Below, one piece after another: positions 7,449 to 28,299 of a stretch of 64,000 bases of DNA. Location of the stretch: NCBI GenBank assembly GCA_025766275.1, contig JAFKAC010000024.1, positions 682,001 to 746,000 of the forward strand, read 5' to 3'. Made by a program: the position numbers and the translations under genes. The notes under the pieces are model-generated. The model was given only the letters and a program-made list of their open reading frames with translations, searched no databases and had not been told where the DNA came from. The stretch is from Lactarius indigo. Its lineage: Eukaryota; Basidiomycota; Agaricomycetes; Russulales; Russulaceae. Numbering within the stretch: position 1 is the stretch's first letter; the number at the start of each line of letters is the position of its first letter.

Positions 7449-7971
7449 TGTTACGCCATCACGGCGTTAGCTCGACTTGAGCTCTATGAAGGCGGTAACA
7501 ACTTAGCGGATTCCTTGAAGACGCGTAGGTCCAAGCGTAGATCTTAGTGAACACTCGAAGGTGCACTTCAACGGGTTGCGATCTTGTGTCACTACTAAGG
7601 GCAGACTCTTGTCCACAGCTTCGAGAGAGAGAGAGAGAGAGAGAAAGAAGAAACAAGTGACGATTCAAGAAGACCAAGATGGCGTATCTTGGTCTTCGCG
7701 AGACACTATAAATACAAGTCGAGCAGGCTTTCAAGCGCTGCTATGAGTCACAGTAAAGTAAGCGTCCAACGTATCGCACAAGTCGCTCGAACCCTAATAC
7801 TACTACTACTAGTACTAGTGGCGTGATCCTCAGTCAGCAATCGTCTCGCAATCTCCTATCGTACTCGTATCACCTATCGTAAGTCCGCAACTAATCTACC
7901 TTACCGCCGTAGTTGCAACCGGTACAGTAAGGGTCACAGTCCGTATAGTCCGTACGAGTCGAAACGTGACA
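7449..7971 (-). repeat. 3' LTR of element C
   Basis: This copy is 523 bp with TGT...ACA ends, identical to 14787-15309 except for three CpG transitions. It includes a GA-dinucleotide tract (7624-7644), a 12-bp inverted repeat with a 5-nt loop (7669-7697) and a TATTTATA box on the element sense strand (7714-7707). Confidence 0.96.
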
Positions 7972-8000
7972 TCACCCCCTTTTCAGTGTGAGACCCCGAC

Positions 8001-11000
8001 TCACCGAAAGTCTCTTGCCGGCCAACTCTGCTGTTCGTCGGCAATGCGCTCGAGTGCAGTGGCGCGCTCCAACCTATAGATGGAGTCTTGCCGGTCGCTT
8101 TGCGCGCATGCAATCATGTCCCGTAACTGCGCCACTCTGGCTCGGAGTCGCTCCAGCTCAAAGCTGGCCGCGCGGTAGCGCGTGACCTCTGCCGTGAGTG
8201 TCTCGTCGTTGATGCGATTGAGAGCACGGTCCGTAATGCGGTCCGCAGCGAAGATGACGAGGTCTTCGTGGGGGTACGTGGGGCACAGCGCGGCGCTGAC
8301 GTGAGGTTCGGCGTAGAGGGGCTTACCGTATAGGTGGGGCGAGCCTGGTATGACTCCCAGTATAAGGGGGTCCGCTCCTCCAATGAGCTGGACGTGGGAA
8401 GCGTCCCTCTCTACTCCGTCGGGCCCGGTGATGGGGTATGGAATGTGATGGGGTCGTCTATTTGCCCGGAACCCTTCAGGCGCAATAACGTGCGCGGGGT
8501 CGTCAGCGGCGGTGAAGGGACGGTGGTCGGCGGCGCCCGGTACACGCACACGTCCTCGGTACATGGTGGACCCGTCAGAGTTGACGAGCCAGGGTGTGAT
8601 GCTGGGATTAGTAGGGTCGCCTTTCATTCGAAGGAAGGCGTGGCGTGCCGGGTAGTAATCGTCGTCGTCATGGCCAGCCTCAGCAGCCTCCATCGCTGCC
8701 GCCGCTCGCGCATCTCTCTCAGTCGGGCCACGGCTGAGTCTAACTGTTCCTTCTGCCACTCCACCGCTACCCTCCTCCATCCGTCCAACTCGTACTCCAG
8801 GAGAGCTTGAACGCTCGTCGTTGCTCGGGAAAATTCCGCGAACGCCGACGAGGTCGTCGCTTGGGGGGATGGCAGCGATGGGCTCGCGCTCACCGTGTTC
8901 GTTTCGAAAGACGTGGGCGACGGCGGAGTCGTCGTCGGGCTGTTGCGTGGGGTCTGGGAATTGAGCAAGGACGTTTGCCCATTCTTGAGCGGTGATGCGG
9001 CCCTCAGGCTGGCCGACAGGTGTGTACGGGGTGATTTGGGCGTTGGGAATTTCAGTCTCATCGTCTTCGGCGAGGAGAGCCCGAGCGTCTTCTGCAAGGG
9101 AGTCGAGGAGGATCGCTTGGGTGACATGTCGCAGAGGGGAAGTGGGCATAAGAGTGTTGGTAGAACGAAGGAAGAGGGGATGACTCTCCTCGGTACAAAT
9201 CGTCCCTCTTTTAACTATTGTTCCGCGTGCTTGCGCTTCCTGATAAAGGCGAAGCGCTTCCGGCGCGAAAACGTCGTCCTTGTTGACCCACTGATTCTCC
9301 GAGTCCGGGTACCCCTTCCATTTGACGAGGTATTGGAGTTGCCTTCTTCTGCCGAAATGCCGAGTGTCTAGAATGGCCTCGACTTCGTATTCTTCTTCTC
9401 CATCTATCAGCTCAGGTGGCAGTCGCGTGAAGCTTTCTCCATGTAAGGAAGTTTGTTTGTACGGGGTGAGAAGATCGATATGAAACACTGGGTGGATGCT
9501 CCACTGTGTGGGAAGTTCCAATCGATAATTGTAAGGGGACATCACCTGTACCACCCGAAAGGGTCCGTGGCGTCGCGCCGCTAATTTCACTGTAGGCTGA
9601 TTGGTCCGAAGGTGTTTGCCCTCGAGCCACATGAGGTCGTTGACGCTGAACTTGGGCGTATCTTTATTGCGTACCCATGACTCTTGCGCCTTTTTCATGA
9701 GGCGTTGGGCGTTGTCTCTAGCTTCTTTCAGCTGTGTTAGTCGTGCTGTGACCTGAGGAAGAGGGGATGGCTTATCGGTCCAATCCGCTTGTGGGTCATA
9801 TCCCATTAAGAGCTGGAACAGAGACTGTTTCGTGTGCTCGTGTGGCCAGTTGTTGTGCGCGAATTCAGCGATTGGCAGATAAGCGACCCAGTTATCTTGC
9901 TGCTCGTTCACCCAGAAGCGTAGGTATTGTTCCAACCATTGATTGGTCCGTTCGGACTGTCCGTCGGTACATGGGTGGTACGCTGTTGATATATTTTGCT
10001 GGATGCCTAGGACTCGACATATTTCTCTGGTGAATTTTGACGCAAATCATGGATCTCTGTCACTAATACACTTGCGCGGTAGCCCGAAGCGCTTGAATAC
10101 GTGGGCAACGTACAGGGCTGCCGTCTCTTCAGCCGTTATCTCTTCTCGACATGGAATAAAGATTGAGGCTTTGCTACAATCGTGATCCGTGACGGTCAAT
10201 ATGCTGTCGTATCCTTGCGACGGGGGAAGTTTGGTAATGAAGTCCATGGCTATGGTTTGGAAGGGCGTGGCGTCCAATACTGGCGTAATTGGATGTAATG
10301 CTGCTCGTATGGGTCTTGTGTTTACCTTGTTCCGTTGACACTCCGCGCAGCCTTGTACATACTCGTACACGTCCTTTCGCAGTCGCGGCCACCAGTAATG
10401 TTGTTCCAGAATTCGTTGCGTTCGTGTCACTCCAGGATGACCGTGTATTGGCAGGTTGTGATGATCATGTATTAGCACACGGTACGTCGAGGCAGGTCCG
10501 GTTATTACAAACCGACCGTCTTTATACCATTCTCCTTCTATCTTCTTGAGGCGATGGGGATCTACCCACATCTTGATCACTTCGTTGTCTTGTTGGTGAC
10601 ACGGTTGCGATAGGTTTGGGTTTGCAATGAAGGTTCGTGCGGCATTGAGGGTTCTCACAAAGACTTCGGGGGGTAGGACGATGACTTCGCTGTTGTCGCC
10701 TGTCCCTTGGTCGTAGTCTGGTCGTCTTGATAATGCGTCTGCTCTGCCGTTGTTTTTTCCTTTGATGTGGTGAATCTCGAAGTCATATTCGGAGAGTTCA
10801 AGCACTTCCCTTGCGACCCGCCTGCTAATTTTCTGCGGTGACTTCCAATACTGCAGGTTGAGATGGTCTGAATAAATTTTGATTTTGTGTGGGGCTCCTG
10901 CGAGTAGCGGTCTCCAATTTCGCAACGCCTTAACTATTGTGAGTAGTTCTAAGTCGTAAATGTCATAGTTTCGTTCTGCTTCCGAGAGTGTGGCTGAATA

Positions 11001-12740
11001 GTAGCCTATAGGGTGCCGTTTTCCGTCAGACTTTCGCTGTAATAATACTGCGCCCACCGCGTATCCAGAGGCATCGACTTCTAACTTGAATGGGTCTTGG
11101 AGTACCGGGTGTGCCAGCACCGGTTCTTCGGTTACAAGGCGTTTGAGGGTGTTGAAGGCGTCATCCTCGTCTTTGGTCCATCGCCATTCTTCGTCTTTTC
11201 GTGTGAGTTTGGTAAGTGGCTTGGCGTGGGTTGCGAAGCCGTGGATGAAGAGTCGGTAAAAGTTACAAAATCCGAGAAATGATCGGACATCTTTGACTTT
11301 TGTTGGCGTTGGCCAGTCCTTGATGCCTTGAACTTTTACAGGGTCCATTCGGGTCACCCCCCTTTCAAGGATTACCCCCAGGTAATCCATCCGCGGCTGA
11401 TGGAACAGGCACTTCTCGAGTTTGAAGTAGAGGTCGTGTTCTTCCGCGACGCGCAGGACATCGCGGACGGCTTCCACATGGGCTGCTAGATCGTGATCAA
11501 AGTGAGTGGCGATACCAATATCGTCCATGTAGACGCGTATGGTAGTGCCCAGTCGTTCGTGCTTTGCTATTGTGTCGCGATAGATGTGGTTCATCATTGC
11601 CTGGAAAGTGGCGGGGGAGTTAGTGAGTCCGAAGAACATGACCGTGGGCTCGAAGAGGCCGAATTTAGTTTTGAACGCCGCCTTTTCCTGGTCGCCGTCG
11701 CGAATGCGTATGTTATTGTAGCCCCACCGGATGTCGAGTTTCGTATAGATGTGGGCATTGCTGAGGTCAAGGATGAGATCCTGTATTAGCGGTAGCGGGT
11801 ACTGATTTCGAATGGTGTGGGAGTTGATGACCCGGTAGTCCTGTACCGGTCGTAGTTTTCCGTCCTTCTTTTTAATGAAGAAGAAGGAGGATGCGTACGG
11901 GGAGATAGAGGGGCGCAGGTACCCCTGCTTTAGCTTCTCCTCTAGGAATTCTTTGAGTTCGCCTTCCTCTTTTTGAGTCATAGGATAGATCTTGCAGTCG
12001 ATGGCGGCCGGCGCGGATGGTTTGAAGTCTATTGCATGATCCCACGGCCTTGCCAGGGGGAAGCGGTGCGAGGCTTGCTCGTTGAAAAGTTTGGTAAACA
12101 TTGCGTATTCTTGAGGGAGCACTGCTGCCGTTTGTTGTTGTTTCGCCTGTATGGCTAACTCCGTTGAGGTGGTGGCTCTAACGAACGTTTCTTCTTCTAG
12201 TTCCCGTACAATGTCTTCCTTTTCGGCCACAATGAGGGCTCGAGTGGCCGTTGTTGATAGCAACGCTTCGGTAGTTGCTAATACTACTGGCTGCATGTCG
12301 GGGTGTATGGTGGCAGTGGCCCAGCTAATTGTTGGTTCGAAGGCGCTCAGCCATGGATAGCCCAGCACCATGTCTTCGCTTCCAAGGTCAGTAACCAGGA
12401 AGGTCATTTGCTTTATCTGTCCTCGTGTTTTCACCTCTAGGTTAACATAATGAGTGATTAACCCAGCTTTGTTCTCCGTGTTGTCTATATTCCATATCTT
12501 GCGAGGTGTATTTAGCGACTGTGTCTGGATACCAGCTCGTTTTGCCAGGCTAGGTCGGATGAAGTTATCGGTTGCGCCAGAGTCGACTAGCGCATTTGTT
12601 TCAGTCGTTTGGTAATTCGTACGGACAGTTACTGGAATTCGCATAGATCGATAGCGTGTTGTCACAATTACAGAATTACATTGAAGAGCCCTCACCCAGA
12701 CTGACGGGTTCAGGCGTCCTGAAAACCCTCCTTTCCCCAT
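8001..12740 (-). pseudogene. pol: Element C pol with a third-gene-like C-terminal extension, one TGA stop
   Basis: This frame lies -1 relative to gag and overlaps its end. Domains in order: protease (ALVDSGATDNF), reverse transcriptase (RVYMDDIGIA near 11520), RNase H (LEVDASGYAVGAV), integrase zinc region (CAECQRNK), integrase core (AMDFITKLP, CISDRDP, then E in NQWLEQYLRF) and chromodomain (LQYLVKWKGYPDSENQW). One TGA (10047-10049) follows SDRDP, where arginine is usual. After the chromodomain the same frame runs on for about 400 residues with no enzyme motif and ends in a coiled-coil stretch (TDRALNRINDETL, AEVTRYRAASFELERL). That tail resembles the separate third ORF of element E. Confidence 0.9.
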
Positions 12741-14767
12741 AGATCTTGAAGTATAAGATCTTTTACTTCATCCGTACTATTGGCCACTTGTGTGAGCCAC
12801 TCTTTGGCTTGCTCTCCTGCCGTTTTTGTGCTTGCAGCGTTGATTTGGGGTGCGGGCGTCACGCTCGGCGCCGGCGACATATACCCGGGCAGCGACGGCA
12901 CGTACTGCGAGACAGGTCCCTGAGGATATCCCGTAGTTTCGGTCATGCGACTGCTGGATGGGGCAGTCTGCCACTGTTGCTGCGTGCGCGGATATGGACA
13001 GTTTCGTGAGAGGTGGCCGGGAGTATGACAGTTATAGCAGAGGACGTTCCTTAAGTCTCTTCGGGATCCTCCTCTCCCTCGTCCTCGAGCTCCCGGTCCT
13101 CCTCTTGGGGGGAACGGTGGCGTAGGCCAGTCGCGGTGAGGTAGTTTGTTGAAGTCGATGTCTTCGGACCCCGCGAGTCTCACCTTGGCACGGTCAGCTG
13201 AGGTGTCCATTGCCCATGGGTTAGTTTGTGGCAGGTTCTGTGGGAGTGTCCATCCCGCATTGCCGCCTTGCTTCTTTGGCGGCGTCGTCGTGTTTTTGTA
13301 TTCATTGAGTCTTGCCTTGAGGTGTATATAATTCTTCTGCCGTTTGAGGACGGCCCTTTTCCAGTCGTCGAACGTGACGGGGTCGTCGAACTGGAACGCG
13401 TTCTTGAACAATTCCTTGGGCAGCCCCAACGTAAAGAGGTCGATGGTTTGGGGTTTGTTGAGGCGGTAGTGAGCCTTCCGTGCAAGCTGTTCAAAATCAT
13501 TGACGTACTTGTCAATGTCTTCTCCCGCCATTTTGAAGCCTTTTCGTAGTATGGCTTGGGCTTGTTCCCTCTCTAGCGTGTTTTCGAACCTCTGGCTGAA
13601 TCCATCAGCTACGGCGTCCCATAGATTGCGAGTGTAGGGGCTGATCCCTCGTTGTATTTGCCTGTTGAGCCAGTTCAGGAAGGACAGGACCCATTCACTG
13701 ACTGCTCCACCTTTGATGTAGGAAAGAAACAGAAGGCATCTTCTGTAGTCGTTGCGCATGATAGGGGCGTCTAGATTCATGCCCCAGTAGACATGCCACT
13801 GCGTCAAGAATTGATCTACTTTGAGCCTGTCTCCGTCAAAGATGGAAGGTGGCTCGCCGGTTAATTTTTCATTATGATGTCCTCCTCCTCCGGCATCTCC
13901 ACCACCTCCTCCCCCTCCACCGCCTCCTCCACCTCCTGGTGGTCCTGTGGGCGGCATTCTTGGTGGTTCGGTTCTTCGTAGATCAAACGGGATACCTCCC
14001 CCTGGTGGCGGTGGCGGGTCTCCACCCGGCCCTCCTATCCCTGGTGGGAGGTCTAGTGCGGGTTGTCGCCCGGATGGGGGGTCCCCCCTATCTGATCCTA
14101 TCGCCCGAAAGATTGCGGCGTCCTCTGCGGTCATTCGTACTCCGGTTTCCGGGTTGATGGGCATAATGATGTCCCTTGCTTCCTCGCGTATTACCCGCGC
14201 TTCTTCCATCGCGACTTCTTCCATTGCACGTGTTATCGTAGCCATGATTGCTGGGGATCGAATGTGAATTGGCTCTGGTTCGGTAATATGCGCAGACTCA
14301 GCTCTTTCTATCAGGAGGTCTTGTATAGCTCCTCCGCTTGTTTCCATCTGGTTTGGCTCTCGGCCTTCGCTTTCTTCCTGGCTTTGATCTTCTTCTTCTT
14401 CTTCTTCTGAAACCACTTCTCCAGTGGAGTGTTCACGTACTTGTCCGTCAATGGGTCCCCAGTCTGATCGGCTATTGAGCTCTCGTGCGTCGATGTCACA
14501 ACGGTATCTGGGTCCAGCTGGTCGTATGATGTCCCACTGGGAGTCTATAGGGTTCCACGCAACTTCTACCCAACACAAGTGGTCGAAGTTGAACTCAACT
14601 GGGCGAAACCTCGAGGGTCCGTTAAATTCCACAAAGTATCTGGTCTCTTCTTGTCGTTCCCTCCAACTGGCAGCTTGTAAAAAGCGCGTGGGGACGTTCC
14701 GTTCTCCTCTTCTTGGGATCGAGTACGGACGGAAGTTCGTCCACTGGTCTCTTGTTGTTACGGCCAC
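12710..14767 (-). CDS. gag: Element C Gag with CCHC zinc knuckle, GTG start
   Basis: The intact frame is 685 residues. It has a charged N-terminal region, an acidic stretch (SEEEEEEDQSQEE), a glycine/proline-rich linker, the retrotransposon Gag core (about residues 305-430) and one zinc knuckle, CYNCHTPGHLSRNC (C-x2-C-x4-H-x4-C). There is no ATG near the start. An in-frame TAA lies 15-18 nt upstream and the first usable start is GTG at 14767-14765 in the context ACTGTGG. The first internal ATG is only near residue 141, yet the region before it resembles element B Gag (FRPVEF.../YEPIEY...). GUG initiation is therefore inferred. Confidence 0.88.
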   Translation of the reverse strand: MAVTTRDQWTNFRPYSIPRRGERNVPTRFLQAASWRERQEETRYFVEFNGPSRFRPVEFNFDHLCWVEVAWNPIDSQWDIIRPAGPRYRCDIDARELNSRSDWGPIDGQVREHSTGEVVSEEEEEEDQSQEESEGREPNQMETSGGAIQDLLIERAESAHITEPEPIHIRSPAIMATITRAMEEVAMEEARVIREEARDIIMPINPETGVRMTAEDAAIFRAIGSDRGDPPSGRQPALDLPPGIGGPGGDPPPPPGGGIPFDLRRTEPPRMPPTGPPGGGGGGGGGGGGGDAGGGGHHNEKLTGEPPSIFDGDRLKVDQFLTQWHVYWGMNLDAPIMRNDYRRCLLFLSYIKGGAVSEWVLSFLNWLNRQIQRGISPYTRNLWDAVADGFSQRFENTLEREQAQAILRKGFKMAGEDIDKYVNDFEQLARKAHYRLNKPQTIDLFTLGLPKELFKNAFQFDDPVTFDDWKRAVLKRQKNYIHLKARLNEYKNTTTPPKKQGGNAGWTLPQNLPQTNPWAMDTSADRAKVRLAGSEDIDFNKLPHRDWPTPPFPPRGGPGARGRGRGGSRRDLRNVLCYNCHTPGHLSRNCPYPRTQQQWQTAPSSSRMTETTGYPQGPVSQYVPSLPGYMSPAPSVTPAPQINAASTKTAGEQAKEWLTQVANSTDEVKDLILQDLWGKEGFQDA
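12722..12728 (-). other. Programmed -1 frameshift heptamer GGGTTTT (gag to pol, C)
   Basis: On the sense strand the gag codons are GAG GGT TTT CAG and the heptamer G GGT TTT fits X XXY YYZ. A -1 slip reads GGG TTT TCA, exactly the pol frame. The gag stop follows after three more codons. Elements B and D have G GAT TTT at the same place. No downstream pseudoknot was analysed. Confidence 0.75.
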
Positions 14768-14773
14768 AGTGAG

Positions 14774-14784
14774 ATCTTGGTCTT
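14774..14784 (-). other. Self-priming primer-binding site of element C
   Basis: The sense sequence AAGACCAAGAT lies 2 nt inside the 5' LTR boundary. Its exact 11-nt complement ATCTTGGTCTT is in the LTR (15018-15008), 34 nt downstream of the first T of the TATTTATA box, where transcription should start. No tRNA-type TGG follows the LTR. This is the arrangement known for Tf1/sushi elements. Confidence 0.8.
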
Positions 14785-14786
14785 AA

Positions 14787-15309
14787 TGTTACGCCGTCAC
14801 GGCGTTAGCTCGACTTGAGCTCTATGAAGGCGGTAACAACTTAGCGGATTCCTTGAAGACGCGTAGGTCCAAGCGTAGATCTTAGTGAACACTCGAAGGT
14901 GCACTTCAACGGGTTGCGATCTTGTGTCACTACTAAGGGCAGACTCTTGTCCACAGCTTCGAGAGAGAGAGAGAGAGAGAGAAAGAAGAAACAAGTGACG
15001 ATTCAAGAAGACCAAGATGGCGTATCTTGGTCTTCGCGAGACACTATAAATACAAGTCGAGCAGGCTTTCAAGCGCTGCTATGAGTCACAGTAAAGTAAG
15101 CGTCCAACGTATCGCACAAGTCGCTCGAACCCTAATACTACTACTACTAGTACTAGTGGCGTGATCCTCAGTCAGCAATCGTCTCGCAATCTCCTATCGT
15201 ACTCGTATCACCTATCGTAAGTCCGCAACTAATCTACCTTACCGCCGTAGTTGCAACCAGTACAGTAAGGGTCACAGTCCGTATAGTCCGTACGAGTCGA
15301 AATGTGACA
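14787..15309 (-). repeat. 5' LTR of element C
   Basis: This is the 523-bp partner of 7449-7971 with TGT...ACA ends; the target duplication TTCGT follows at 15310-15314. It contains the promoter, hairpin and GA tract described for the element. Confidence 0.96.
15007..15052 (-). promoter_or_regulatory. Element C promoter: TATA box and RNA 5' end hairpin
   Basis: On the sense strand TATTTATA (15052-15045) is followed by a perfect 12-bp inverted repeat, GAAGACCAAGAT / ATCTTGGTCTTC, with a 5-nt loop. The second arm begins at the expected RNA 5' end and provides the 11 nt complementary to the primer-binding site. Confidence 0.65.
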
Positions 15310-15672
15310 TTCGTCGTTTCCAAGGTCCATAATGAGGAATCGAAGATTTTGGGTTTTCCCTCCCGTTTTGACAGTTAGATTGGTGAATGAAGTGATTTCG
15401 CCTCCTTGGTTGTGGGTCCCGTCCACATTCCATATTTTAATAGGTCGTTCCATGGCCAGCCAAGCGATTTTTAATCTTCATAGGAGGTTTGCGCTTATAA
15501 AGTTGTTGGTTGCCCCAGAGTCGACAAGGACATTCCGTTCGGCCATCGCGTGTGCAGATTTGAAAAGTACTGGAATTCGCATAGATCGGAATCTGCTATT
15601 GTACACGCTAAGTTTTAATGCTCTAGCCCAGGCCGCCGGGTTCAAGCGTTCAGAAAATCCTTCTTTTGGCCA
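15310..15672 (-). pseudogene. pol: Element B protease, proximal part before the C insertion
   Basis: The pol frame enters by the -1 shift at 15654-15660 (EGFSERLNPAAWARA, matching C pol GGFSGRLNPSVWVRA) and shows the protease motif LVDSGATNNF. A TGA interrupts it at 15478-15480. It stops at the element C boundary after LGNDE and resumes at 7448 in the same frame. Confidence 0.85.
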
Positions 15673-17321
15673 AACAATTTGTCCACCATCAATTCTCGTA
15701 CTTCTGGGGTTTGTGCGAATAGCGCTGCTACTTGGGCGTCCGCTTGTTCCTCATTAGAAAGGGGGTGTGACGCGGTCATGGAGATAGTGGCAGTTGTAGG
15801 GGCGCTGGTCGTGGGAGCTGCGGTTTCTGTTGCCTTGATGGTGGTGGACTTTTGAGGGCAGTTGCGGGAAATATGCCCTTGGCCTCGGCAACGGAAGCAC
15901 CTCCCTTCTTTTTGCAGCTGCAGTTTTTTGGTATCTGTTAAAGCAGCTCTTGCCCTTGTGCGGCTAACATCCATTGCGTTGGGGTCTCAGTTTTTGTTCA
16001 GCGCCAACAACCATTGGTCATGGGATGCTCCCCCTCGTTTGTTGTTTCCTCCTTTTGTGAGTTTGTCCTTTAAAAGGAGGTATTTGGCTTGTTGCAGTAT
16101 TACAGCTGCTTTCCAGTCATCCCATGTGATTGGGTGATGGAATTTGATTGCATTTACAACAAGGGTGTTGGGAAGTCCCTTCTGGAAGATTTCCAATGTT
16201 GTGGCTTCGTCCTTATTGTACCCTGCTTTGTTAGCGAGGTTTGAGAATTTGGCAATATATGTGTCGATGTCTTCTTTTTCCATTCTGAGGTTTTGAATGG
16301 TGTGTCGGGCTTTTTGTTGTTGTGTGGTATCGGTGTAGGCTTGAATGAATTGTGCTTCGATAGTGTCCCAAAGGTTTTCTTCGTTTAGGGGCACTCCGGC
16401 TACTAGTTGGGCGACAAGCCATTGAATTTGTTCTTCGACCCAGTCGTCCACAAGGGGACCTCGGATGTACGAAAGGAGAGTCATTGCGTGGGAGTACGGG
16501 ACCACCAGTTGTTGTACAGTGGGGTTCATTCCTCGATAGAGGGAGAAGGCGTTGAGAAATGCCCAACTTGATTCCCGATCTCCCATAAACTCTGGCGGAG
16601 CGTTTCCTCCGAGTCTCCCATTAAGGAGGCCTGGGGCCGCTCCTCCTCCTGCAGCTGCGCCTCCACCTCCAGGTGCACCGCCTCTGCCTCCAGGCGCACC
16701 GCCTCCACCTCCAGGCGCACCACCTCCACCTCCAGGCGCACCGCCTCCATGATGGCTTCCTGGGCCTCCTGGAGGGCCGCTTCCGCCTGCTGACGCACTT
16801 CCTCCCATAGGATGTCCTCCACCACTTGGAGCAGCCGCAGAGGAGGACGCTCCTCCACTGGGATGACCGCTTCCTGACTGGGTGAGGGTGGTTGTGAGTT
16901 GGGTTTGGGTGGTGGACATGTTGGCATACGATGCAAAGTCAACTGGTCTGGTAATAGTGGGTGTGAGGGTAGGATCGGGGTTTTCGCTGTCTGAGTTGGG
17001 TTCTGCGACGTCGGAGTCAACGTCAATGCCTTGTATTCGGGTTTTTCCTGGTCTGAGTCCGAGAGACGCAGGTACTGGTTTGATCGAGTACCAAGAGTTC
17101 TTTTTGTCTGAATAGGCGATGTAGGCCCAGACGTGTTGGTCTTCGATATACTCGATGGGTTCGTAGGTATTTTTGTCGGGGTCGAAGATGTAGTAGCCTG
17201 TGTCGTGGGGAGTGTTTCTCCAAGTAGCCGTTCCTTTGATCGAGGATCGGAGGTCGTTGTCAGTGTGTCGTTCCAGGTATTCCTGGACAAACTTGGTTCG
17301 GCTTCGGCTGGTGAGAGCCAC
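15642..17321 (-). pseudogene. gag: Element B Gag with CCHC knuckle, one TGA stop
   Basis: The frame encodes an N-terminal region (TYEPIEYIEDQHVWAYIAY), a glycine/proline-rich repeat linker, the Gag core and, after a TGA at 15987-15989, a zinc knuckle CFRCRGQGHISRNC. The TGA lies before DPNAMDV in an otherwise continuous frame, so it reads as a decayed CGA codon. As in element C there is no ATG for the first roughly 130 codons; the first candidate start is GTG at 17321-17319 in context ACCGTGG, with an in-frame TAA just upstream inside the LTR. Confidence 0.85.
15654..15660 (-). other. Programmed -1 frameshift heptamer GGATTTT (gag to pol, B)
   Basis: The gag reading AAG GAT TTT CTG shifts at G GAT TTT to GGA TTT TCT, the frame that continues as pol. 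The position, four codons before the gag stop, matches element C. Confidence 0.7.
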
Positions 17322-17329
17322 GGTGTAAG

Positions 17330-17340
17330 AGACTAGACTT
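17330..17340 (-). other. Self-priming primer-binding site of element B
   Basis: Sense AAGTCTAGTCT starts 2 nt inside the LTR edge (17343). Its exact 11-nt complement AGACTAGACTT is in the LTR at 17569-17559. The spacing and length are the same as in element C. Confidence 0.78.
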
Positions 17341-17342
17341 AA

Positions 17343-17611
17343 TGTAACGCCACTACAGGGGCGTTAGATACGACCTGTATCAAGTCAGTCAAGTCGCGGT
17401 AGCACAAGCTCTAAGGCGAGGCTTCAGTAGAGTGGTGCACAAGGATCACAAGGACGTTCGTCACTTGGATCGTAGAGGAAGGCTAAGACTCGAAGGTCTA
17501 GCGAGTTCGTGAGACAGGAGAAGGGGCACAAAGGTGTTCGAGTGTAGTATTACACAAGAAGTCTAGTCTACTGTACAAGCTAGGTATGACTAGGGTTAAA
17601 TAGTAGTCGTG
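17343..17611 (-). repeat. 5' LTR of element B, inner part
   Basis: The LTR edge next to gag is TGTAACGCC (plus strand, 17343), resembling the C LTR edge TGTTACGCC. The outer end cannot be fixed. An LTR-like block of opposite orientation starts near 17612, so either the B LTR is truncated there or the true end lies further right. Confidence 0.6.
17559..17602 (-). promoter_or_regulatory. Element B promoter and predicted RNA 5' end
   Basis: Sense TATTTAA (17602-17596) lies 33 nt before AGACTAGACTT (17569-17559), the 11 nt complementary to the primer-binding site. It is followed by CTTG, as in elements C and D. Confidence 0.6.
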
Positions 17612-18341
17612 TGTCACGGACGCTCTATTTTCGCCTTATTTTTCTGTATTTTTACAGATTTATTTGATGAAGATACGAGTCTCCAACGTTGTGTCAAACA
17701 TCCAAAGTCCTTATCATTAGATATGATAAGATGGTTAGTCACGTGATGCCAACATGTGCACCCACAAGCACGTGACCCTGGGATAGTAACTCCCTTATGG
17801 GATGTTACCTCTTTAGGTCACCTTCCTCATTAGTGCAGTAGTTTCTCATTGGACGATAAGCAGGGAAGGTTCTAGATAGTTCTAGACTACGTTGTCATAG
17901 GGTTGTGACTCATAGATAAGGACACGTCATTGTTCTGTCAGCATTAATGACTATGCATCAGTCAGCACAATAGATAATGCTATTATTAGACACGACGCGT
18001 CAGCGTCTGACTCATTACTATTACACGTACCTTTAGTAATAAGGTTCTATAGTAATTCGAACTCAGCTGCAGCATAGTATATAAACCCTCATGTAGCGTC
18101 CTGAGTGGAACCAACTTGTCCTCTTGGTTCTCCACTCAGCATGCCATAGCGTGATCACCAGACCTTTGGGCTTGTATAAAGTCCTCACGTGTGTCTACTC
18201 TCCACTGTGCCTGTACGTTCGGCGCGTGACTTGTCTCCGCGTTAGGCTTGGGTGTGTTCCCAGTTCAGTTCGCTAACCTTCACCTTGGTCTAGTTGTACG
18301 CGATAAGTCATACCGCTACATTGTGTTGTATGACTGTCACA
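17612..18341 (+). repeat. Probable extra LTR (F), plus orientation
   Basis: The block starts TGTCACGG and ends GTCACA, contains TATATAAA (18078) and, at the expected start site, an imperfect inverted repeat (CTGAGTGGAACCAA... TTGGTTCTCCACTCAG). Its size (730 bp) and TATA position resemble the D LTR. There is no partner copy, no matching 5-bp duplication and no fitting primer site after it, so it may be a solo LTR, a fragment, or part of the B LTR. Confidence 0.4.
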
Positions 18342-18582
18342 AACAGATGGCATCATTGCTGAGTCGAGAAACAAAGGGATAGGCATAAAGAGAACAAAGC
18401 GAGGAGATATCAAAGATAAGGGTGAATCACGCAGGGTCGCACGTGAATAGAAGTAAGTCAGACACTAGCACATGTCAAGCTTTATCAGAAGGGAACGTCG
18501 ATAAGCAGGGCGCATGATAGGAATCAGGTAAATGTAAAGTCCACGTGATCATACAGGGCTCGTATGGTGTGGGAAGGGAATA
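18342..18582. other. Unassigned 241 bp between LTR block and element E
   Basis: The stretch is rich in A and G on the plus strand. No open frame, repeat or integrase motif could be recognised; it may be decayed pol of element E. Confidence 0.4.
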
Positions 18583-18837
18583 GTGGTAAGAAAAGAAACG
18601 AGTCCAGGGAAAATCGTAACACCACCACCACCTGACCTGATCAATGGTGAAGAAGAGCAGGAAGTCGAAGCTATTCTGGACATACGACGGCATAAAGGGC
18701 ACAAACTGGAATACCTAATCAAATGGAAGGGATTCCCATCGTCAGAGAATGAGTGGGTCAGAAAAGAGGACATGCACGCTGATGACCTTGTCAAACAGTT
18801 CTATCTTCAAAAACGTACAAATACTAAGACGAACTGA
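18583..18837 (+). pseudogene. pol: Element E chromodomain fragment (3' end of pol)
   Basis: The frame reads [20 protein letters not shown] then [18 protein letters not shown], the typical end of a chromodomain integrase, and stops after KTN. The rest of pol upstream is missing or unrecognisable. It places element E in the same chromodomain group as A-D. Confidence 0.8.
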
Positions 18838-19320
18838 AGAGAACGAACCATTCCCTCTTCCTCCAACAATGTCCTCTCAACCGTCTCAGCTCTTTTCCAG
18901 TTACAGTCACATTGTCCAAGAAGCAGCTGCCATCGCACAGCTGTGGATCGCCATTCGCACTGGAACGCACAATGAAGGAGATATCCCCATGTTGCAACAA
19001 ATTCTTCACCCTAACCTCTTCACTGACTATGTCGAACCACCTCCGCCCACAATCGAAGAGATTCACCAAGACAAGTGGATCAACACCCAGCTCGCAGGAG
19101 AACTCCCGTCTATTTCACCAATCCAATCCCCTCCACGCTCTCTTGTCCCCAATGACCACCCAGGCGACGATTGGCACTTCAATCACCCTGACTGTCACGA
19201 ACCTATAAACCTGGTCGTGACCCAAGGGCGCCTAGGACCGGCCCGCATCGGACCGGTCTTATGTAATCACCTTCCTAAAGGGGAATTCCGAATCGGAGTT
19301 TGAATTCTGCTCTCAAATGA

Positions 19321-19380
19321 TCACGTGATCTGTCACGTGATCTGTCACGTCTCTCAAGCCACGTGTTGTGTACACGTGTA
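19321..19380 (+). promoter_or_regulatory. CACGTG palindrome cluster in the D LTR
   Basis: Within 60 bp there are two ATCACGTGAT/TCACGTGAT-type sites, a further CACGT, CCACGTG and TACACGTGTA. CACGTG is the E-box bound by fungal bHLH factors of the Pho4/Cbf1 type. The cluster is about 270-330 bp upstream of the TATA box and is duplicated in the right LTR. Regulation by such a factor is inference. Confidence 0.45.
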
Positions 19381-19647
19381 CTTATCAACAAGTTGATTGT
19401 TGATCAATCAACGAAGATAATCACCCAAGTCACCACCCCTCGGGGATTCCCGCATTGACTGCGGAATCACGCCATTCTAACGCAAGATTGCGCCATCGAC
19501 TGCGGCGCAGCTGTTCTATGTTTAAACCTCTTCTTATTGGACTCTATTGATAGATGTCTCTAGAATGTTCCTTTGCGCAGTACTGCGCAGCACCCGTGGA
19601 CAGGCCCTAAGCCTGCCCTAAACCTACGCACAGACCACCCCCTGTAG

Positions 19648-19692
19648 TATATAAGCTGGTGCAATTCTACGGACAGTCCCTCAGACTGTCCA
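19648..19692 (+). promoter_or_regulatory. Element D TATA box, RNA start hairpin and priming sequence
   Basis: TATATAA starts at 19648. AGACTGTCCA (19683-19692) starts 35 nt later and is the exact complement of the primer-binding site TGGACAGTCT. An inverted repeat GGACAGTC/GACTGTCC (19671-19678 and 19684-19691) surrounds the predicted start. Confidence 0.65.
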
Positions 19693-19842
19693 CTTGTGAC
19701 ATCCTCCCCTTGCCTCTCAGCTCCTTCGAGTGCCCCACACTTCGTGCGCCACTACTTCTCTTTGAGCCAAGGCCGTAGCCCACGTTTCCTACAATCTTCT
19801 ACACCCTCCGCAGCCCCCAGTCTCCGCCTTCGTCGTGACCCC

Positions 19843-19856
19843 CTGTCGAGTGACAG
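19843..19856 (+). other. GAGT-loop hairpin near the end of the D LTR
   Basis: Perfect 5-bp stem CTGTC/GACAG with loop GAGT, 54 nt before the GTG of the first ORF. It is the shortest of four hairpins in this element with the same C[GAGT]G cap; the others are at 21198, 21260 and 22283. Confidence 0.5.
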
Positions 19857-19870
19857 TGAGTCATCACACT

Positions 19871-19880
19871 TGGACAGTCT
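19871..19880 (+). other. Self-priming primer-binding site of element D
   Basis: TGGACAGTCT lies 2 nt after the LTR end (19868) and is complementary over 10 nt to AGACTGTCCA at the predicted RNA 5' end (19683-19692). It begins TGG like a tRNA-primed site, but the self-complement and 2-nt offset match elements B and C. Confidence 0.7.
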
Positions 19881-19909
19881 AACCAATAGACTGACTCCGG
19901 GCTGCTCCA

Positions 19910-21172: not shown

Positions 21173-21197
21173 ATAAGTGGTTATATATTTGCCTTGT

Positions 21198-21279
21198 CTT
21201 GAAACGAGTGTTTTAAGTGCAACGCAAGTAAGTAAGTGCTTACTTATTTGGGTTTTGGACTTAAATCGAGTGATTTAAG
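21198..21279 (+). other. Two GAGT-loop hairpins between ORFs D1 and D2
   Basis: The first is CTTGAAAC[GAGT]GTTTTAAG (21198-21217, one G-T pair), the second CTTAAATC[GAGT]GATTTAAG (21260-21279, perfect 8 bp). The second ends on the G of the GTG that opens D2. Between them is a palindrome, AAGTAAGTGCTTACTT. The 106-nt gap between D1 and D2 is mostly occupied by these structures. Confidence 0.6.
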
Positions 21280-22990: not shown

Positions 22991-24538
22991 ATGAACACGC
23001 AACGAACCCTCACAGACGAAGAAAAAGCCCACATCCCAGTATACTTCTTTGACCCCTATTTTTCCCTTACCGACAACCTTTACTACGCTAAGTGGAAAGA
23101 AGAGGATATCTCCAGCCCCACAGGAAAACACCCGTGGACAATAGTTGCTACCCAGCACCAAATCGTTTTTCAGGACCTAAAAGAAGCCTTTCCTGGTATC
23201 GACAAAGTCAAAGACCTAAGCTACAACTCCCTACACGCCACTTTCAAAGGAAAGAACGTCCGTTGGAACTTCGTAAACGAACAGTGGGTCTACCTAAACA
23301 ACAAACCAGTCCACTTCAACACACCTAGCGAATCCGACGATTCAACAAGCGACACAGAGGAAGTATCGCAAATCCTAGACACTACTACCAAGAAACTCTC
23401 CGGTCTACTATCCCAAGTAACCTCCCGGCCCTCGACACCCCAGATTTCCCCTAGTACCCCCGGCCCTAGCCATTTCCCTGTAACAGTTCCACCACAGCGA
23501 CTCCCGTCACCACCCCTGACTGTTCGAGCCTCTTCCTCAGCACCCCCCTTATCCGTTCCTCCTGTACCCACTGCAATGGCAGCCCCTGCACCTGCAAAAA
23601 TCTTAGGCGCAGCGCCAGAACCCTTTAACGGCAAACCGGACCATGCGGAGGCCTTTTGGAACAACCTGGCCAATTACTTCCATCTAAACCAGGATATCTT
23701 TAACTCCGACGACAAAAAGGTATCCACTGCCCTTACCTATTTCAAAGTTGGAACCCCAGCAGGAGAATGGGCTCAAGATAGGCAAAAGAAAGCCTTAAAC
23801 CCAACCGGTGGTGCAGCAATTAGTTTCGGCACCTGGGCACAGTTCAAAACCGACTTCGATGCACACTTCGTTCCTGGTCACACTGCCATGGAATCCACTA
23901 ACAAGATGTATTCTCTGAAAATGGGAACCCGACCTTTCAACGAATGGTTCCAAGAATGGTCAACCCATGCTACACGAAGTGGTGCAAATGAACAAACCAA
24001 GATGTATGCCTTCCGACAAGCTATCCCAACAGCTTTAAATATGAAGCTGCTCGGCATATCCCCCATCCCTACCACCTTCGACACCCTTGTTGAGAAAGCA
24101 AGAGAATTCGATCGCGCCTATCGAATTTATGCTGGGAATGCCATTAACCAGTTTAACAAAACCCATAAGCCCACCACAGGACGAGCTGTCCTCGCAGAAG
24201 ACGATAGCGTTAATGTCAACGCTTCCTCATCTCGCACTACCAAACCAAGGAACAAACTTACCAAGGAAGAGCGAGAGTATCGCTTCAGGAACAAACTCTG
24301 TCTGTACTGTGGCAAACCAGGCCACGTACTTAAAGAATGTCACGCCAAGACGGCAGCCATGAAGGCCAAAGGAGGCCAAACCAACAACGCTAGGGCGCGT
24401 GGCGCCTTTGTTGAGGAACCAAGTCAGGAGGAAGCACCTGCTGACCACCCAGCAAACATTGGAGCGGTATATCGAGAGATACTCCCTTTTGACCCGGACG
24501 CACGTCCGCGTTCGGTGCCTATTAATGAGGATTTTTAG
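22991..24538 (+). CDS. gag: Element D Gag with CCHC zinc knuckle
   Basis: The frame is 515 codons from ATG 22991 (MNTQRTLTDEEK). It has an N-terminal region, a proline/serine-rich linker, the Gag core (EPFNGKPDHAEAFWNNLANY, then MKLLGISPIP) and a knuckle CLYCGKPGHVLKEC. It ends at TAG 24536-24538, inside the frameshift site that feeds pol. No stops or frameshifts interrupt it. Gag packages the element RNA in virus-like particles. Confidence 0.92.
   Translation: MNTQRTLTDEEKAHIPVYFFDPYFSLTDNLYYAKWKEEDISSPTGKHPWTIVATQHQIVFQDLKEAFPGIDKVKDLSYNSLHATFKGKNVRWNFVNEQWVYLNNKPVHFNTPSESDDSTSDTEEVSQILDTTTKKLSGLLSQVTSRPSTPQISPSTPGPSHFPVTVPPQRLPSPPLTVRASSSAPPLSVPPVPTAMAAPAPAKILGAAPEPFNGKPDHAEAFWNNLANYFHLNQDIFNSDDKKVSTALTYFKVGTPAGEWAQDRQKKALNPTGGAAISFGTWAQFKTDFDAHFVPGHTAMESTNKMYSLKMGTRPFNEWFQEWSTHATRSGANEQTKMYAFRQAIPTALNMKLLGISPIPTTFDTLVEKAREFDRAYRIYAGNAINQFNKTHKPTTGRAVLAEDDSVNVNASSSRTTKPRNKLTKEEREYRFRNKLCLYCGKPGHVLKECHAKTAAMKAKGGQTNNARARGAFVEEPSQEEAPADHPANIGAVYREILPFDPDARPRSVPINEDF
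24529..24535 (+). other. Programmed -1 frameshift heptamer GGATTTT (gag to pol, D)
   Basis: The gag codons are GAG GAT TTT TAG. Slipping -1 on G GAT TTT gives GGA TTT TTA, which reads through the gag stop into pol. The pol frame has TAA TGA directly upstream, so it opens only three codons before the gag stop; entry must occur here or by another recoding event. Confidence 0.75.
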
Positions 24539-27500
24539 GCTCTTCCATCGTAGCACTGTCGATTGGAAGTATTCGTGCCAGTAGCGTTGTACACGGCCTT
24601 TCCCTACTAGAGACGCTCGGAGCCGAGCATGTACCTGCAGAAACAATTCGGAATAGGAGAGCTCCTTCAATTGTTCTCAGAGTTACACTAGTAGGAAAGA
24701 AGTCTGGCAAAGAAATCAGTGCCCGTGCCCTGTTGGACAGTGGTGCGGAGGGCATCATCGTGGATGATGGGTTTGCGCGTGCAAACAACCTAACAATGCG
24801 AACACTAATTAAACCCTTACCAGTTAGAAACGTGGATGGGTCTCCCAACAAGACGGGATCTGTTAAGTACACTACGATCCAGAGACTATGGATCAGGACT
24901 TCCGATGACAACTACCACGACGAAACCGTGGAACTCTATGCAACTACCCTAGTGGAGCACGATATAATCTTAGGAACAGATTGGCTCCAAGCACATAATC
25001 CTGAAATCGATTGGCATCAACCAAAGATAGCTTTCACCCGATGCCCAAGAACCTGTACCCTGTCCTCCTCAGCAGTTGTCATCTCTTCAAAAACACCGCA
25101 AACGCGACATACGACTATTAACATCCTCGAACTCGACGCTGACCAAGAAACCTGTCTCCCCATAAATGAAGAAAATAAACCCCTGGAACCTGCCTTCATC
25201 AACGACGCCTGCGAACCCTGGCTGTGGATCCACAGCTTTAGCAAGTATGACCACCTTGCCATCCGAGCAAAAGTAACTACAAGCACCAAGATAGCAGCAC
25301 GCACTGCACCTAAGCCTTCCACCGACCACGTTCCGAGCCACTTCCAACGATACACTAAAGTATTCAGCGAAATCGCGTCCCACCGACTACCCCAACATCA
25401 GCCCTGGGATCACGCAATTGACCTCAAACCAGGAGCCACTATGAAGAATTGTGGCATTTATCGACTTACGCCAAAGGAATCCGATGCCCTCAAGGAATAC
25501 ATCTCTGAACACCTAAAGAAAGGTTACATTCGACCATCTAAGTCACCCATGGCCTCTCCCTTCTTCTTTGTCGACAAGAAGGATGGCAAACTCCGACCTG
25601 TGCAAGACTACCGCGCCCTCAACGACATAACCATTAAGAACGCAGCCCCCCTTCCCCTTATCCCTGAACTCATCGACAAACTCCATGGTGCGCGCTACTT
25701 TACCAAGCTAGATATTCGTTGGGGATACAACAATATCCGCATCCGCGAAGGCGATGAATACAAGGCAGCCTTCAAAACATCCTTAGGACTCTTTGAGCCA
25801 ACCGTAATGACTTTTGGCCTCTGCAATGCCCCTGCCACTTTCCAAACATTCATGAACCAAGTTTTTGAGTCCCTGATTGACGGTGGACACGTAGTAGTCT
25901 ACCTCGATGACATCTTGATCTTTACAGAAGATATCTCCTCACTCACGACATTGACGCACGACGTGCTTCAGCGACTGGAACACCACGACCTCTACCTGAA
26001 ACCTGAAAAATGTACATTTGCACAAACTTCAGTCGAATACCTCGGAATTGTCATTTCCGATGGCCAAGTCTCCATGGATCCTGCAAAGGTTGCAGGTATT
26101 ACTCAATGGCCCACTCCGCGCACTGTCAAACAAGTACAAGCCTTTCTAGGCTTTTGCAACTTCTATCGACGCTTCATTAAAGACTACTCCACGATCGCCC
26201 GACCATTGTTTGACCTAACCAAGAAAGATGTCCCCTTTTCTTGGGATACTGCGGCGGAAACCGCTTTCCGCACCTTGATTAAACGCTTCACCGAGGCCCC
26301 TGTCCTTGCCCTACCTGACCATTCTAAACCCTTCCGCCTCATCACTGATGCAAGTGATTTTGCTACTGGTGCCATCCTGGAACAACCTGATGCCTTGCAA
26401 CATTGGCACCCCGTCGCCTTCCTTTCTAAATCCCTCCTTCCTGCCGAGCGTCACTACGAAATCTGTGACAAGGAACTTCTTGCCATCATCCATGCCTTAC
26501 ATGCTTTCCGCCACTACCTAGAAGGGCGGAACGACGTTACTGAAATCTGGTCCGACCATGGCAACCTTGTCTATTTTACCACGAAACAGAAACTTTCTCG
26601 CCGACAGGCCCGTTGGGCCCTGTTCCTCTCTCGCTTCCAGTTCATCATCATCCACAAACCTGGAACGCAGAATAGATCTGATGCACTGTCTCGGCGTCCA
26701 GATCATAAAAAGGGGATAGCGGATGAAGATGAAAAGCGAGTGCTCCTGGACACCAAATATTTTTCCATTAATGCAGTACAAAGAACTGCAGTAACCGTTC
26801 ACGGTGATACCACCCTCCGACAGCGTATTAAAAACACCCAGACCTATGACAAGGAAGTCAGCATGGCTCTAGAATCCCTCTTAAAGAATGGCCCTCGATC
26901 CCTAGCTAAAGGCCTAGAAGAGTGGAACTTAGAAGACGGCATTATCTTGTTCAAAGGACAAGTCTATGTTCCCAAAGATGACAACCTACGAAGAGACATC
27001 ATTAAGACATACCACGACCACATCGCCACAGGACATCCAGGGCGATGGAAGACCTATGAGTTAATATCCCGAGATTTCTGGTGGCCAGGAATATCAACAT
27101 TCGTTAAAACCTATGTTGATGGTTGCGCCACATGCCAAACCACTAAAATCAAACCACGTACCCAAGTACCCCTACAACCAAATGCAATTCCTGAAGAAAT
27201 ATGGGGAACCATCACAATGGACTTCATCACCGACCTTCCCCTATCCCACAACTACGATTCATTATTTGTAGTGGTCGACCGACTCAGCAAAGCAATAGTC
27301 ATTTCCCCTTGCAACAAAACCATCACTGCAGACGAAACAGCTCAACTCTACCTTGAAAATGTCTGGAGACGTACTGGCCTACCTCGACAAGTCATCTCCG
27401 ACAGAGGCCCCCAATTTGCATCAAAGGTCATGCAAGAAATTTGGAACAAACTTGGAGTCAAATCCACACTATCTACAGCTTTCCACCCACAAACCGATGG

Positions 27501-28299
27501 AGAAACTGAACGTGTCAACCAAGAACTTGAACAATACCTTCGCGTCTTCTGCAACTTCCAACAAGATAACTGGGTGGATCTAATCCCGTTCATGGAATTT
27601 GCACACAATGCCCGACAACACAGCGCAACCCACAAATCACCCTTCGAGGTTTGGTATGGATACAAACCAGAGTTCATTCCCCCTACCCATTTCACCACCA
27701 AAATACCTACAGCTGAGGAAAGATTAAATGCACTAAATCAAATCCGCTCCGAAGTTACCGCAGCCCTTAAGGTAGCAGCGGAAGTCATGAGAATGTCAAA
27801 AACACCCACCCCCTCTCATGAATTCAAGACAGGCGATCTAGTCTGGCTGGAAGGAACCAACATCCATACTACCCACCCCAAAGCTAAGCTCGCCCCACGA
27901 CGCCACGGCCCCTTTAAAGTCCTTTCTACCTGGGGAGTCAATTGCAAGCTCCAACTCCCCAAGACATGGCGCATCCACCCAGTCTTCCACAACTCCTTGA
28001 TCTCTCCATACAAAGAAAACACCACGCATGGCCCTAACTTCACCCGACCACCCCCCGAAATTGTCCAAGGGGAAGACGAACACTATGAAGTCGAAAAAGT
28101 CCTGCAGTCAAAGGTATCGCCTAACAAGAAGGGCATACTTTACTTGATCAAGTGGAAGGGGTATCCCGACTCCGAAAACTCCTGGCTCCCCTCCTCCCAA
28201 ATGACCCATGCGCAAGACCTTATTGGTCAATTTCACAAGGCCAACCCTGGTGCCCCTAAACCAAAGTCAACTAGTGCTAGTGGAATAGCACGACGTTAA
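24529..28299 (+). CDS. pol: Element D Pol, intact protease-RT-RNase H-integrase-chromodomain
   Basis: The frame opens at the shift site and runs uninterrupted to TAA 28297-28299, about 1256 codons. Domains in order: protease (ALLDSGAEG, 24724-24750), reverse transcriptase (DIRWGYNNIRI, VYLDDILIF near 25898-25920), RNase H (LITDASDFATGAIL, DKELLAIIHAL), integrase zinc region (CATCQTTK), integrase core (TMDFITDLP, ISDRGPQFAS, TDGETERVNQELEQY), GPY/F-type HGPFKVLS and a chromodomain (YLIKWKGYPDSENSW). All catalytic aspartates and the integrase glutamate are present. The chromodomain should direct integration to marked chromatin. With LTRs differing by one base this looks like a potentially active copy. 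Confidence 0.95.
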   Translation, partial: GFLGSSIVALSIGSIRASSVVHGLSLLETLGAEHVPAETIRNRRAPSIVLRVTLVGKKSGKEISARALLDSGAEGIIVDDGFARANNLTMRTLIKPLPVRNVDGSPNKTGSVKYTTIQRLWIRTSDDNYHDETVELYATTLVEHDIILGTDWLQAHNPEIDWHQPKIAFTRCPRTCTLSSSAVVISSKTPQTRHTTINILELDADQETCLPINEENKPLEPAFINDACEPWLWIHSFSKYDHLAIRAKVTTSTKIAARTAPKPSTDHVPSHFQRYTKVFSEIASHRLPQHQPWDHAIDLKPGATMKNCGIYRLTPKESDALKEYISEHLKKGYIRPSKSPMASPFFFVDKKDGKLRPVQDYRALNDITIKNAAPLPLIPELIDKLHGARYFTKLDIRWGYNNIRIREGDEYKAAFKTSLGLFEPTVMTFGLCNAPATFQTFMNQVFESLIDGGHVVVYLDDILIFTEDISSLTTLTHDVLQRLEHHDLYLKPEKCTFAQTSVEYLGIVISDGQVSMDPAKVAGITQWPTPRTVKQVQAFLGFCNFYRRFIKDYSTIARPLFDLTKKDVPFSWDTAAETAFRTLIKRFTEAPVLALPDHSKPFRLITDASDFATGAILEQPDALQHWHPVAFLSKSLLPAERHYEICDKELLAIIHALHAFRHYLEGRNDVTEIWSDHGNLVYFTTKQKLSRRQARWALFLSRFQFIIIHKPGTQNRSDALSRRPDHKKGIADEDEKRVLLDTKYFSINAVQRTAVTVHGDTTLRQRIKNTQTYDKEVSMALESLLKNGPRSLAKGLEEWNLEDGIILFKGQVYVPKDDNLRRDIIKTYHDHIATGHPGRWKTYELISRDFWWPGISTFVKTYVDGCATCQTTKIKPRTQVPLQPNAIPEEIWGTITMDFITDLPLSHNYDSLFVVVDRLSKAIVISPCNKTITADETAQLYLENVWRRTGLPRQVISDRGPQFASKVMQEIWNKLGVKSTLSTAFHPQTDGETERVNQELEQYLRVFCNFQQDNWVDLIPFMEFAHNARQHSATHKSPFEVWYGYKPEFIPPTHFTTKIPTAEERLNALNQIRSEVTAALKVAAEVMRMSKTPTPSHEFKTGDLVWLEGTNIHTTHPKAKLAPRRHGPFKVLSTWGVNCKLQLPKTWRIHPVFHNSLISPYKENTTHGPNFTRPPPEIVQGEDEHYEVEKVLQSKVSPNKKGILYLIKWKGYPDSENSWLPSSQMTHAQDLIGQFHKANPGAPKPKSTSASGIARR

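What the first reader, a model, noticed from the sequence alone, without database searches (positions are those of the whole stretch)
14774..19880. Three nested elements show Tf1-type self-priming sites with one shared geometry
In B, C and D the sequence 2 nt inside the 5' LTR is complementary over 11, 11 and 10 nt to LTR sequence starting 33, 34 and 35 nt after the first T of the TATA box (B 17330-17340 with 17559-17569; C 14774-14784 with 15008-15018; D 19871-19880 with 19683-19692). In all three the complementary block is followed by CTTG. Self-priming from the RNA 5' end over 11 nt is established for Tf1 and relatives. Seeing it three times with constant spacing makes chance unlikely and gives a rule for finding such elements.
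Basis: partly seen in the sequence, partly recalled or inferred. Interest (0 to 1): 0.8.

Follow-up and report, generated by a model that had tools for sequence, protein, structure and literature searches.

The report
Self-priming retrotransposon families in one fungus
Several families of jumping genes in this fungal genome carry matching start and priming sites that imply each RNA copy uses its own first 10 to 12 letters as the primer for making DNA, a mechanism already known from fission yeast and here shown to co-evolve across families.

Summary
All three complements are exact at the stated coordinates, 2 nt inside the LTR and 33, 34 and 35 nt after TATA. It is not chance: 26 of 27 leader-bearing B/C-type LTR ends pair over 10-11 nt, while 0 of 42 other LTR flanks reach 9, and the exact B pair occurs 230 times in the genome (control 0). 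Families not used to set the rule (E, G, A) show it too. Primer and PBS covary: 6 of 11 pairs change on both sides. A, B, C and E have a second helix like one duplex of Tf1's 'pretzel' RNA; D and G do not. One family, F, has no such complement and lies outside the RT clade. Best reading: Tf1/sushi-type self-priming, a known mechanism already proposed for the basidiomycete element Tcn1. RNA 5' ends and RNase H cleavage remain untested. Corrections: D is not nested with B and C; CTTG is not invariant; TATA spacing is a consistency check. Unexplained extra: in C and D, U3 holds all or 8 nt of the PBS sequence and would hide the 3' primer copy in a hairpin.

The parts
14774..14784 (-). PBS of element C (AAGACCAAGAT on the element strand), 2 nt after the 5' LTR
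15008..15018 (-). C self-primer block, predicted RNA nt 1-11 (ATCTTGGTCTT)
15046..15052 (-). C TATA-like box
   Evidence: position derived from the 34-nt spacing
15024..15035 (-). U3 arm of C equal to the PBS plus one base; 12-bp hairpin with the primer block
   Evidence: 11-12 nt in 18 of 18 C places
14995..15001 (-). C helix-2 arm in R (+18 to +24, TCGTCAC)
14794..14800 (-). C helix-2 arm near the LTR 3' end (GTGACGG)
14787..15310 (-). C 5' LTR (524 bp)
   Evidence: 99.4% identical to 7449-7972
7449..7972 (-). C 3' LTR; 5-bp target duplication TTCGT
17330..17340 (-). PBS of element B (AAGTCTAGTCT)
17559..17569 (-). B self-primer block (AGACTAGACTT)
17543..17549 (-). B helix-2 arm in R (TACTACA)
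17351..17357 (-). B helix-2 arm near the LTR 3' end (TGTAGTG)
17343..18621 (-). B 5' LTR, split by a solo G-family LTR
   Evidence: compared with the unsplit B 3' LTR in L040
17612..18320 (+). solo LTR of family G, itself a self-priming family
19871..19880 (+). PBS of element D (TGGACAGTCT)
19683..19692 (+). D self-primer block (AGACTGTCCA)
19648..19654 (+). D TATA box (TATATAA), first T 35 nt before the block
19671..19678 (+). U3 arm of D (GGACAGTC), 8-bp hairpin with the primer block
19193..19868 (+). D 5' LTR (676 bp); 3' LTR 28311-28986; target duplication CTGAC
3296..3683 (+). 3' LTR of element A; its 5' LTR and PBS lie left of the window (contig 157, 679458-679845), with a 12-nt complement
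10047..12767 (-). C pol ORF (protease, RT, RNase H, integrase zinc finger)
24529..28299 (+). D pol ORF with SH3_Tf2-1 and chromodomain

Best explanation
B, C and D (and A, E and G in the same genome) are Ty3/gypsy-type LTR elements, C and D shown with chromodomains, that prime reverse transcription with their own RNA 5' end, as Tf1 does. RNA polymerase II starts about 33-35 nt after TATA, so the transcript begins with the 10-12-nt block (first base A in B, C, D, E and G). This 5' end folds back about 190-280 nt onto the PBS just inside the LTR; in A, B, C and E a second helix between R and the LTR 3' end would hold the fold. RNase H of the element's RT then cuts after the paired block, and the freed 3' end primes minus-strand DNA through U5 and R. 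Shown here: the sequence anatomy, its recurrence, covariation and predicted folding. Inferred from Tf1: the RNA 5' end, the cut and the priming. A corollary (inference): plus-strand DNA copies the primer, so each replication round can rewrite the PBS to match R, which would make covariation self-maintaining.
For: Exact complements at the predicted place. Distinct places chosen for an intact PBS (so places with a changed PBS, or with under 320 nt upstream, are left out): block 11/11 in 9 of 10 B (one 10/11), 2 of 2 B-variant, 18 of 19 C, 7 of 8 E (one 10/11); 10/10 in 8 of 8 D and 10 of 10 G; one TATA distance per family, save the odd C place. That place (L068) lies about 30 nt 3' of a B-type LTR match. 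D: 13 of 20 fetched places bear the PBS, all 10/10; the other 7 are followed by other DNA. G: 10 of 12 examined. 230 genome places hold the exact B pair, 0 for the reversed control. Covariation over 12 distinct B/C/E types: 93.9% of cells paired (72.8% shuffled), 30 two-sided cells (11.7), 0 of 500 shuffles each; a B variant has two compensating changes. Cross-family pairing is 6.0-8.3 of 10 against 9.9-10 own. Fold from +1: mean P(primer:PBS) at least 0.86 in 55 of 58 copies, not deduplicated. Helix 2 at a fixed LTR-end segment: A p 0.0065, B 0.04, C 0.013, E 0.001. A shows the complement, examined after the rule was set. B, C, D, E and G share an RT clade; F, one copy without the complement, lies outside.
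Against: No RNA 5' end, RT or RNase H data. Three of 58 folds are weak: 0.52 and 0.68 (C) and 0.45 (the one G copy). Helix 2 is absent in D and G and weak in the one C-subfamily-2 copy (p 0.10); with free choice of segment it is significant only in C and E types (B 0.13), and R of B and C then scores higher with D's LTR end than with their own. No convincing third 'pretzel' duplex. The D PBS starts with TGG like a tRNA site. C subfamily 2 (5 places) and 3 of 12 E places have one or two mismatches between PBS and block, and one C place (L021) has a PBS deletion, read as decay but not dated. In A the match is 12 nt from 1 nt after the LTR, so the 2-nt offset is not strict. Two of the five measures do not exceed shuffles. 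F sits on a long branch whose place the tool calls unsure. No named Tf1/sushi element is in the tree.
Confidence: 0.92

Rival explanations
1. The PBS is for a host tRNA and the LTR complement is a by-product or chance.
For: The D PBS begins TGG, complementary to a CCA end, at the usual distance from the LTR.
Against: A, B, C, E and G PBSs do not begin TGG. A T-arm-shaped pattern that would fit D gives 23 places (control 4); 4 of the 23 were fetched and none is a tRNA by ARAGORN or Rfam; 19 were not examined. tRNA sites would not covary with the LTR.
Confidence: 0.03
2. The complement is a DNA-level inverted repeat (promoter or integration feature) unrelated to priming.
For: C, D and G also have palindromes around the predicted start site.
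Against: One arm sits at the PBS, outside the LTR, and is absent after the 42 other LTR ends; the other sits at the predicted RNA 5' end.
Confidence: 0.04
3. Chance or search bias of a reader scanning for complements.
For: Short complements are easy to find when any offset is allowed.
Against: Fixed offset and TATA distance, recurrence, covariation and hits in families not used to set the rule.
Confidence: 0.01

Closest known systems
Tf1/Tf2 and the Tf1/sushi group of chromoviruses (passages of PMC7175516, PMC4600332 and PMC10085805, of the last also section 28 part 1)
   Same: First 11 nt of Tf1 RNA complementary to the PBS; PBS just after the terminal CA; further duplexes between PBS-adjacent and LTR sequence; Ty3/gypsy pol
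   Different: Primers here are 10-12 nt by family; only one of the two extra Tf1 duplexes is supported, in A, B, C and E; C and D add a U3 hairpin arm
Tcn1 of Cryptococcus neoformans, a basidiomycete (PMC7175516 passage, citing Goodwin and Poulter 2001, not seen)
   Same: Basidiomycete Ty3/gypsy element already proposed to self-prime
   Different: Several families in one genome here, with covariation between families
Plant Tcn1 and TAR lineages (PMC6317226 passages)
   Same: Self-priming predicted from an LTR complement of at least 10 bp starting 0-5 bp after the LTR
   Different: Plants; no start-site or covariation test in the passages read. A related plant element, SM-Tcn1, showed neither tRNA nor self-priming signs (PMC2864245 passage)

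Membership tests
Tf1/sushi self-priming chromoviruses | Ty3/gypsy pol with chromodomain | tested here: met
   Met for C and D: RT, RNase H, integrase parts, SH3_Tf2-1 and Chromo. B: SH3_Tf2-1 but no chromodomain in the pieces scanned. E and G: RT, RNase H and integrase parts, 3' ends not scanned. A: pol not assigned
Tf1/sushi self-priming chromoviruses | PBS just inside the LTR complementary to the LTR at the predicted RNA 5' end | tested here: met
Tf1/sushi self-priming chromoviruses | Primer and PBS covary | tested here: met
   one search counts 12 hand-picked distinct B, C and E types (related to one another; D, G and A left out); the cross table includes D and G
Tf1/sushi self-priming chromoviruses | 'Pretzel' RNA: two more duplexes beside primer:PBS | tested here: inconclusive
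   One duplex supported in A, B, C, E, not D, G; no convincing third (best 4 of 60 shuffles as high for C, 3 of 60 for G)
Tf1/sushi self-priming chromoviruses | RT groups with Tf1/sushi elements | tested here: inconclusive
   B, C, D, E and G in one clade of the 22-row tree, F outside; no named Tf1, sushi, Tcn1 or marY1 sequence in the tree; A not included
Tf1/sushi self-priming chromoviruses | RNA 5' end is the primer and RNase H cuts after nt 11 | not testable with these tools
   needs RNA and enzyme work
tRNA-primed Ty3/gypsy elements | PBS beginning TGG complementary to a tRNA 3' end | tested here: not met
   A, B, C, E and G lack TGG. D has TGG; 4 of 23 candidate places fetched are not tRNAs, 19 not examined, so D alone is not fully settled

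The most novel reading that the evidence does not exclude
In C and D, U3 carries all (C) or 8 nt (D) of the PBS sequence directly upstream of the start site. The genomic RNA has the primer sequence twice, at its 5' end and again in the 3' LTR; only the 3' copy is preceded by U3. The U3 arm would lock that 3' copy into a hairpin, so that the 5' copy alone can reach the PBS: a built-in guard against priming from the wrong copy. Predicted primer accessibility in the 3' context falls to 0.01 (C) and 0.20 (D) against 0.53 and 0.39 with shuffled U3, and in C the arm is 94% conserved against 67-70% for flanks and 84% for the loop. B and E show it weakly or not at all and G exposes the primer in a loop, so it would be a family-level device; a palindromic promoter site explains the same data.
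Probability: 0.15. Interest if true: 0.6.

Novelty: new member of a known kind. Interest (0 to 1): 0.42.

Why it matters
It turns a mechanism known from a few elements into a sequence rule that can be checked by covariation across families in one genome, offers an annotation test for elements without a tRNA-type PBS, and predicts RNA start sites. The U3 hairpin raises a testable question: how an RNA carrying its primer sequence twice avoids using the wrong copy.

Tried and rejected
LTR/PBS module swapping: the window B RT looked only 50% like protein P0016, which I took for the 1188-aa family of this genome; three fetched RT pieces are 89-92% identical to B, so the idea was wrong. Universal U3 hairpin: fails in B, E and G. 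CTTG as part of the rule: fails in E and some C copies. Third pretzel duplex: not convincing. The first free duplex scan over the whole leader gave D 9 of 300 and G 14 of 300 shuffles as good as the best helix and was weaker for the rest; helix 2 came out only after narrowing to R and the LTR end, so its p-values carry some choice. One pattern place (L108) has only 9 of 11 at another position and was not counted in any family. Relatives of C and D pol in viral contigs: none confirmed. Genome-wide count for the C pair, crossed B/C controls and an A pair: not obtained, the tool was unreachable.
Full report
Check. C is a full element, 7449-15310 on the minus strand, with 524-bp LTRs 99.4% alike and target duplication TTCGT. 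D is full, 19193-28986, with duplication CTGAC. B's 5' LTR is 17343-18621 and is split by a solo LTR of another family, G, at 17612-18320; B is interrupted by C, and its 3' LTR lies left of the window. A further element, A, has its 3' LTR at 3296-3683 and its 5' LTR outside. So C is nested in B, while D is a neighbour.

Surroundings. The window lies in an unnamed 90.3-Mb assembly of 291 contigs with 2417 first-look RVT_1 candidates, 150 scored. Named pol relatives of D among the 120 listed include proteins of Lyophyllum, Dentipellis and Trametes, but also Berkeleyomyces, two green algae and, at the top by score, Ambystoma mexicanum; an Agaricomycete host is inference. C and D pols are Ty3/gypsy with chromodomain.

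Recurrence. Searching the C and B LTRs gave 40 and 42 matches, of which 30 each were cut out. Of 72 LTR ends found in these loci, 3 were too short; of the other 69, 27 carry the TTAAG leader and 26 of these pair over 10-11 nt; the miss (L021) has a deletion in the PBS; none of the 42 other flanks passes 8 nt. A leader pattern has 897 genome places (control 8), only the first of which were listed; the listed ones are mostly the B or C PBS, and rarer types were then sought. A pattern for the exact B block and PBS at the right distance gives 230 places, 0 in the control. D: 20 of the 40 LTR places were fetched in part; 13 bear the PBS, all 10/10.

Further families. E (PBS AAGTCGAGCTT) has the block AAGCTCGACTT 35 nt after a degenerate TACTTAA; of 12 E-type places fetched, 9 pair 11/11, one 10/11 and two 9/11. 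G (PBS AGGACAAGTT) has AACTTGTCCT 35 nt after TATATAA; 10 of 12 examined bear it, and 9 of these 10 carry a second block from a duplication of about 67 nt. A, looked at last and in one copy, has TAGCTTTGGCTT complementary over 12 nt to the sequence starting 1 nt after its LTR; the block starts 33 nt after TATATAA. F (one copy, 296-bp LTR) has no such complement, best 8 of 11; its RT is a long branch outside the clade (95/95) holding B, C, D, E and G, a place the tool calls unsure. A was not in the tree.

Covariation. B and a two-copy variant differ by two adjacent changes in the PBS and two matching ones in the block. Over 12 distinct, hand-picked and partly related B/C/E types, 6 of 11 pairs change on both sides, 93.9% of cells pair (72.8% shuffled), covariation score 0.588 (0.173), 0 of 500 shuffles; sliding the partner destroys it. 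Two measures there, pairs with a two-sided change and further pair types, did not exceed shuffles (129 and 195 of 500). One-sided mismatches also occur: all 5 C-subfamily-2 places fetched for their odd PBS differ by one or two bases from the block.

RNA structure. Started at the block, 55 of 58 copies (not deduplicated) fold with mean primer:PBS probability of 0.86 or more; two C copies reach 0.52 and 0.68 and the single G copy 0.45. R +18 to +31 pairs with a segment 8-17 nt before the LTR end in A, B, C and E, each with its own sequence, with compensating changes in C subfamilies. At that fixed segment p is 0.0065 (A, one copy), 0.04 (B), 0.013 (C), 0.10 (one C-subfamily-2 copy), 0.001 (E), 0.98 (D) and 0.43 (G). 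With the segment free and G-U allowed the picture is less clean: B 0.13, C 0.03, E 0.01, and R of B and C pairs better with D's LTR end than with their own. This resembles one of the two extra duplexes of the Tf1 'pretzel' described in PMC10085805 (passages; section 28 part 1).

U3 hairpin. In C (18 of 18 places, 11-12 nt) and D (8 of 8 distinct, 8 nt) the 30 nt upstream of the block hold the block's complement; B has 4-7 nt, its variant 3-4, E 4-6, G 3. Away from the start site, runs of 12 nt do not occur and runs of 8 occur in 0-1.2% of windows. What it does is unknown; see the novel case.

Known or new. PMC7175516 (passages) states that the first 11 bases of Tf1 RNA pair with the PBS with RNase H cleavage between 11 and 12, and that Tcn1 of Cryptococcus was proposed to self-prime while Tcn2-5 may prime in new ways. 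PMC6317226 (passages) predicts self-priming in plant Tcn1 and TAR elements; PMC2864245 (passages) found neither tRNA nor self-priming signs in SM-Tcn1. So the mechanism is known and these are new members. I saw no description of a U3 hairpin over the self-primer in eight full-text searches of the open library (listings) and in passages of six papers; papers under other licences are not held, including two on Tf1 that I asked for, so this is weak evidence of absence.

Noticed in passing
17612-18320: Solo LTR of self-priming family G inside B's 5' LTR, just upstream of B's TATA box; the unsplit site is seen in B's 3' LTR (L040).
   Followed up: yes
19895-22262: D carries two ORFs (425 and 327 aa) between its 5' LTR and gag with no Pfam match at E 0.001.
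   Followed up: no
18619-18834: Chromodomain remnant (Pfam E 3e-14) between B and D, perhaps the 3' end of yet another pol.
   Followed up: partly
L110, L115, L116, L118, L119, L121-L125: Nine of these ten G LTRs carry a duplication of about 67 nt that repeats the self-primer block; L119 lacks it. The first G block sits in the loop of a strong predicted hairpin.
   Followed up: partly
L111, L112 (contig 201): Family F: Ty3/gypsy pol without the LTR complement and without TGG at the usual place after the LTR; priming mode unknown.
   Followed up: partly
17345-17362 and 14789-14803: B and C LTRs, and that of A, end in an inverted repeat (ACGCC...GGCGT) just before the terminal bases; approximate places, read.
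   Followed up: partly
genome-wide: 23 places with a near-identical word (GTTCAAGACGATARAGACTGT type), a dispersed repeat that mimics a tRNA T-arm; no tRNA found in 4 of 4 tested.
   Followed up: partly
60297-61961: ORF with DUF6535, perhaps a host gene.
   Followed up: no
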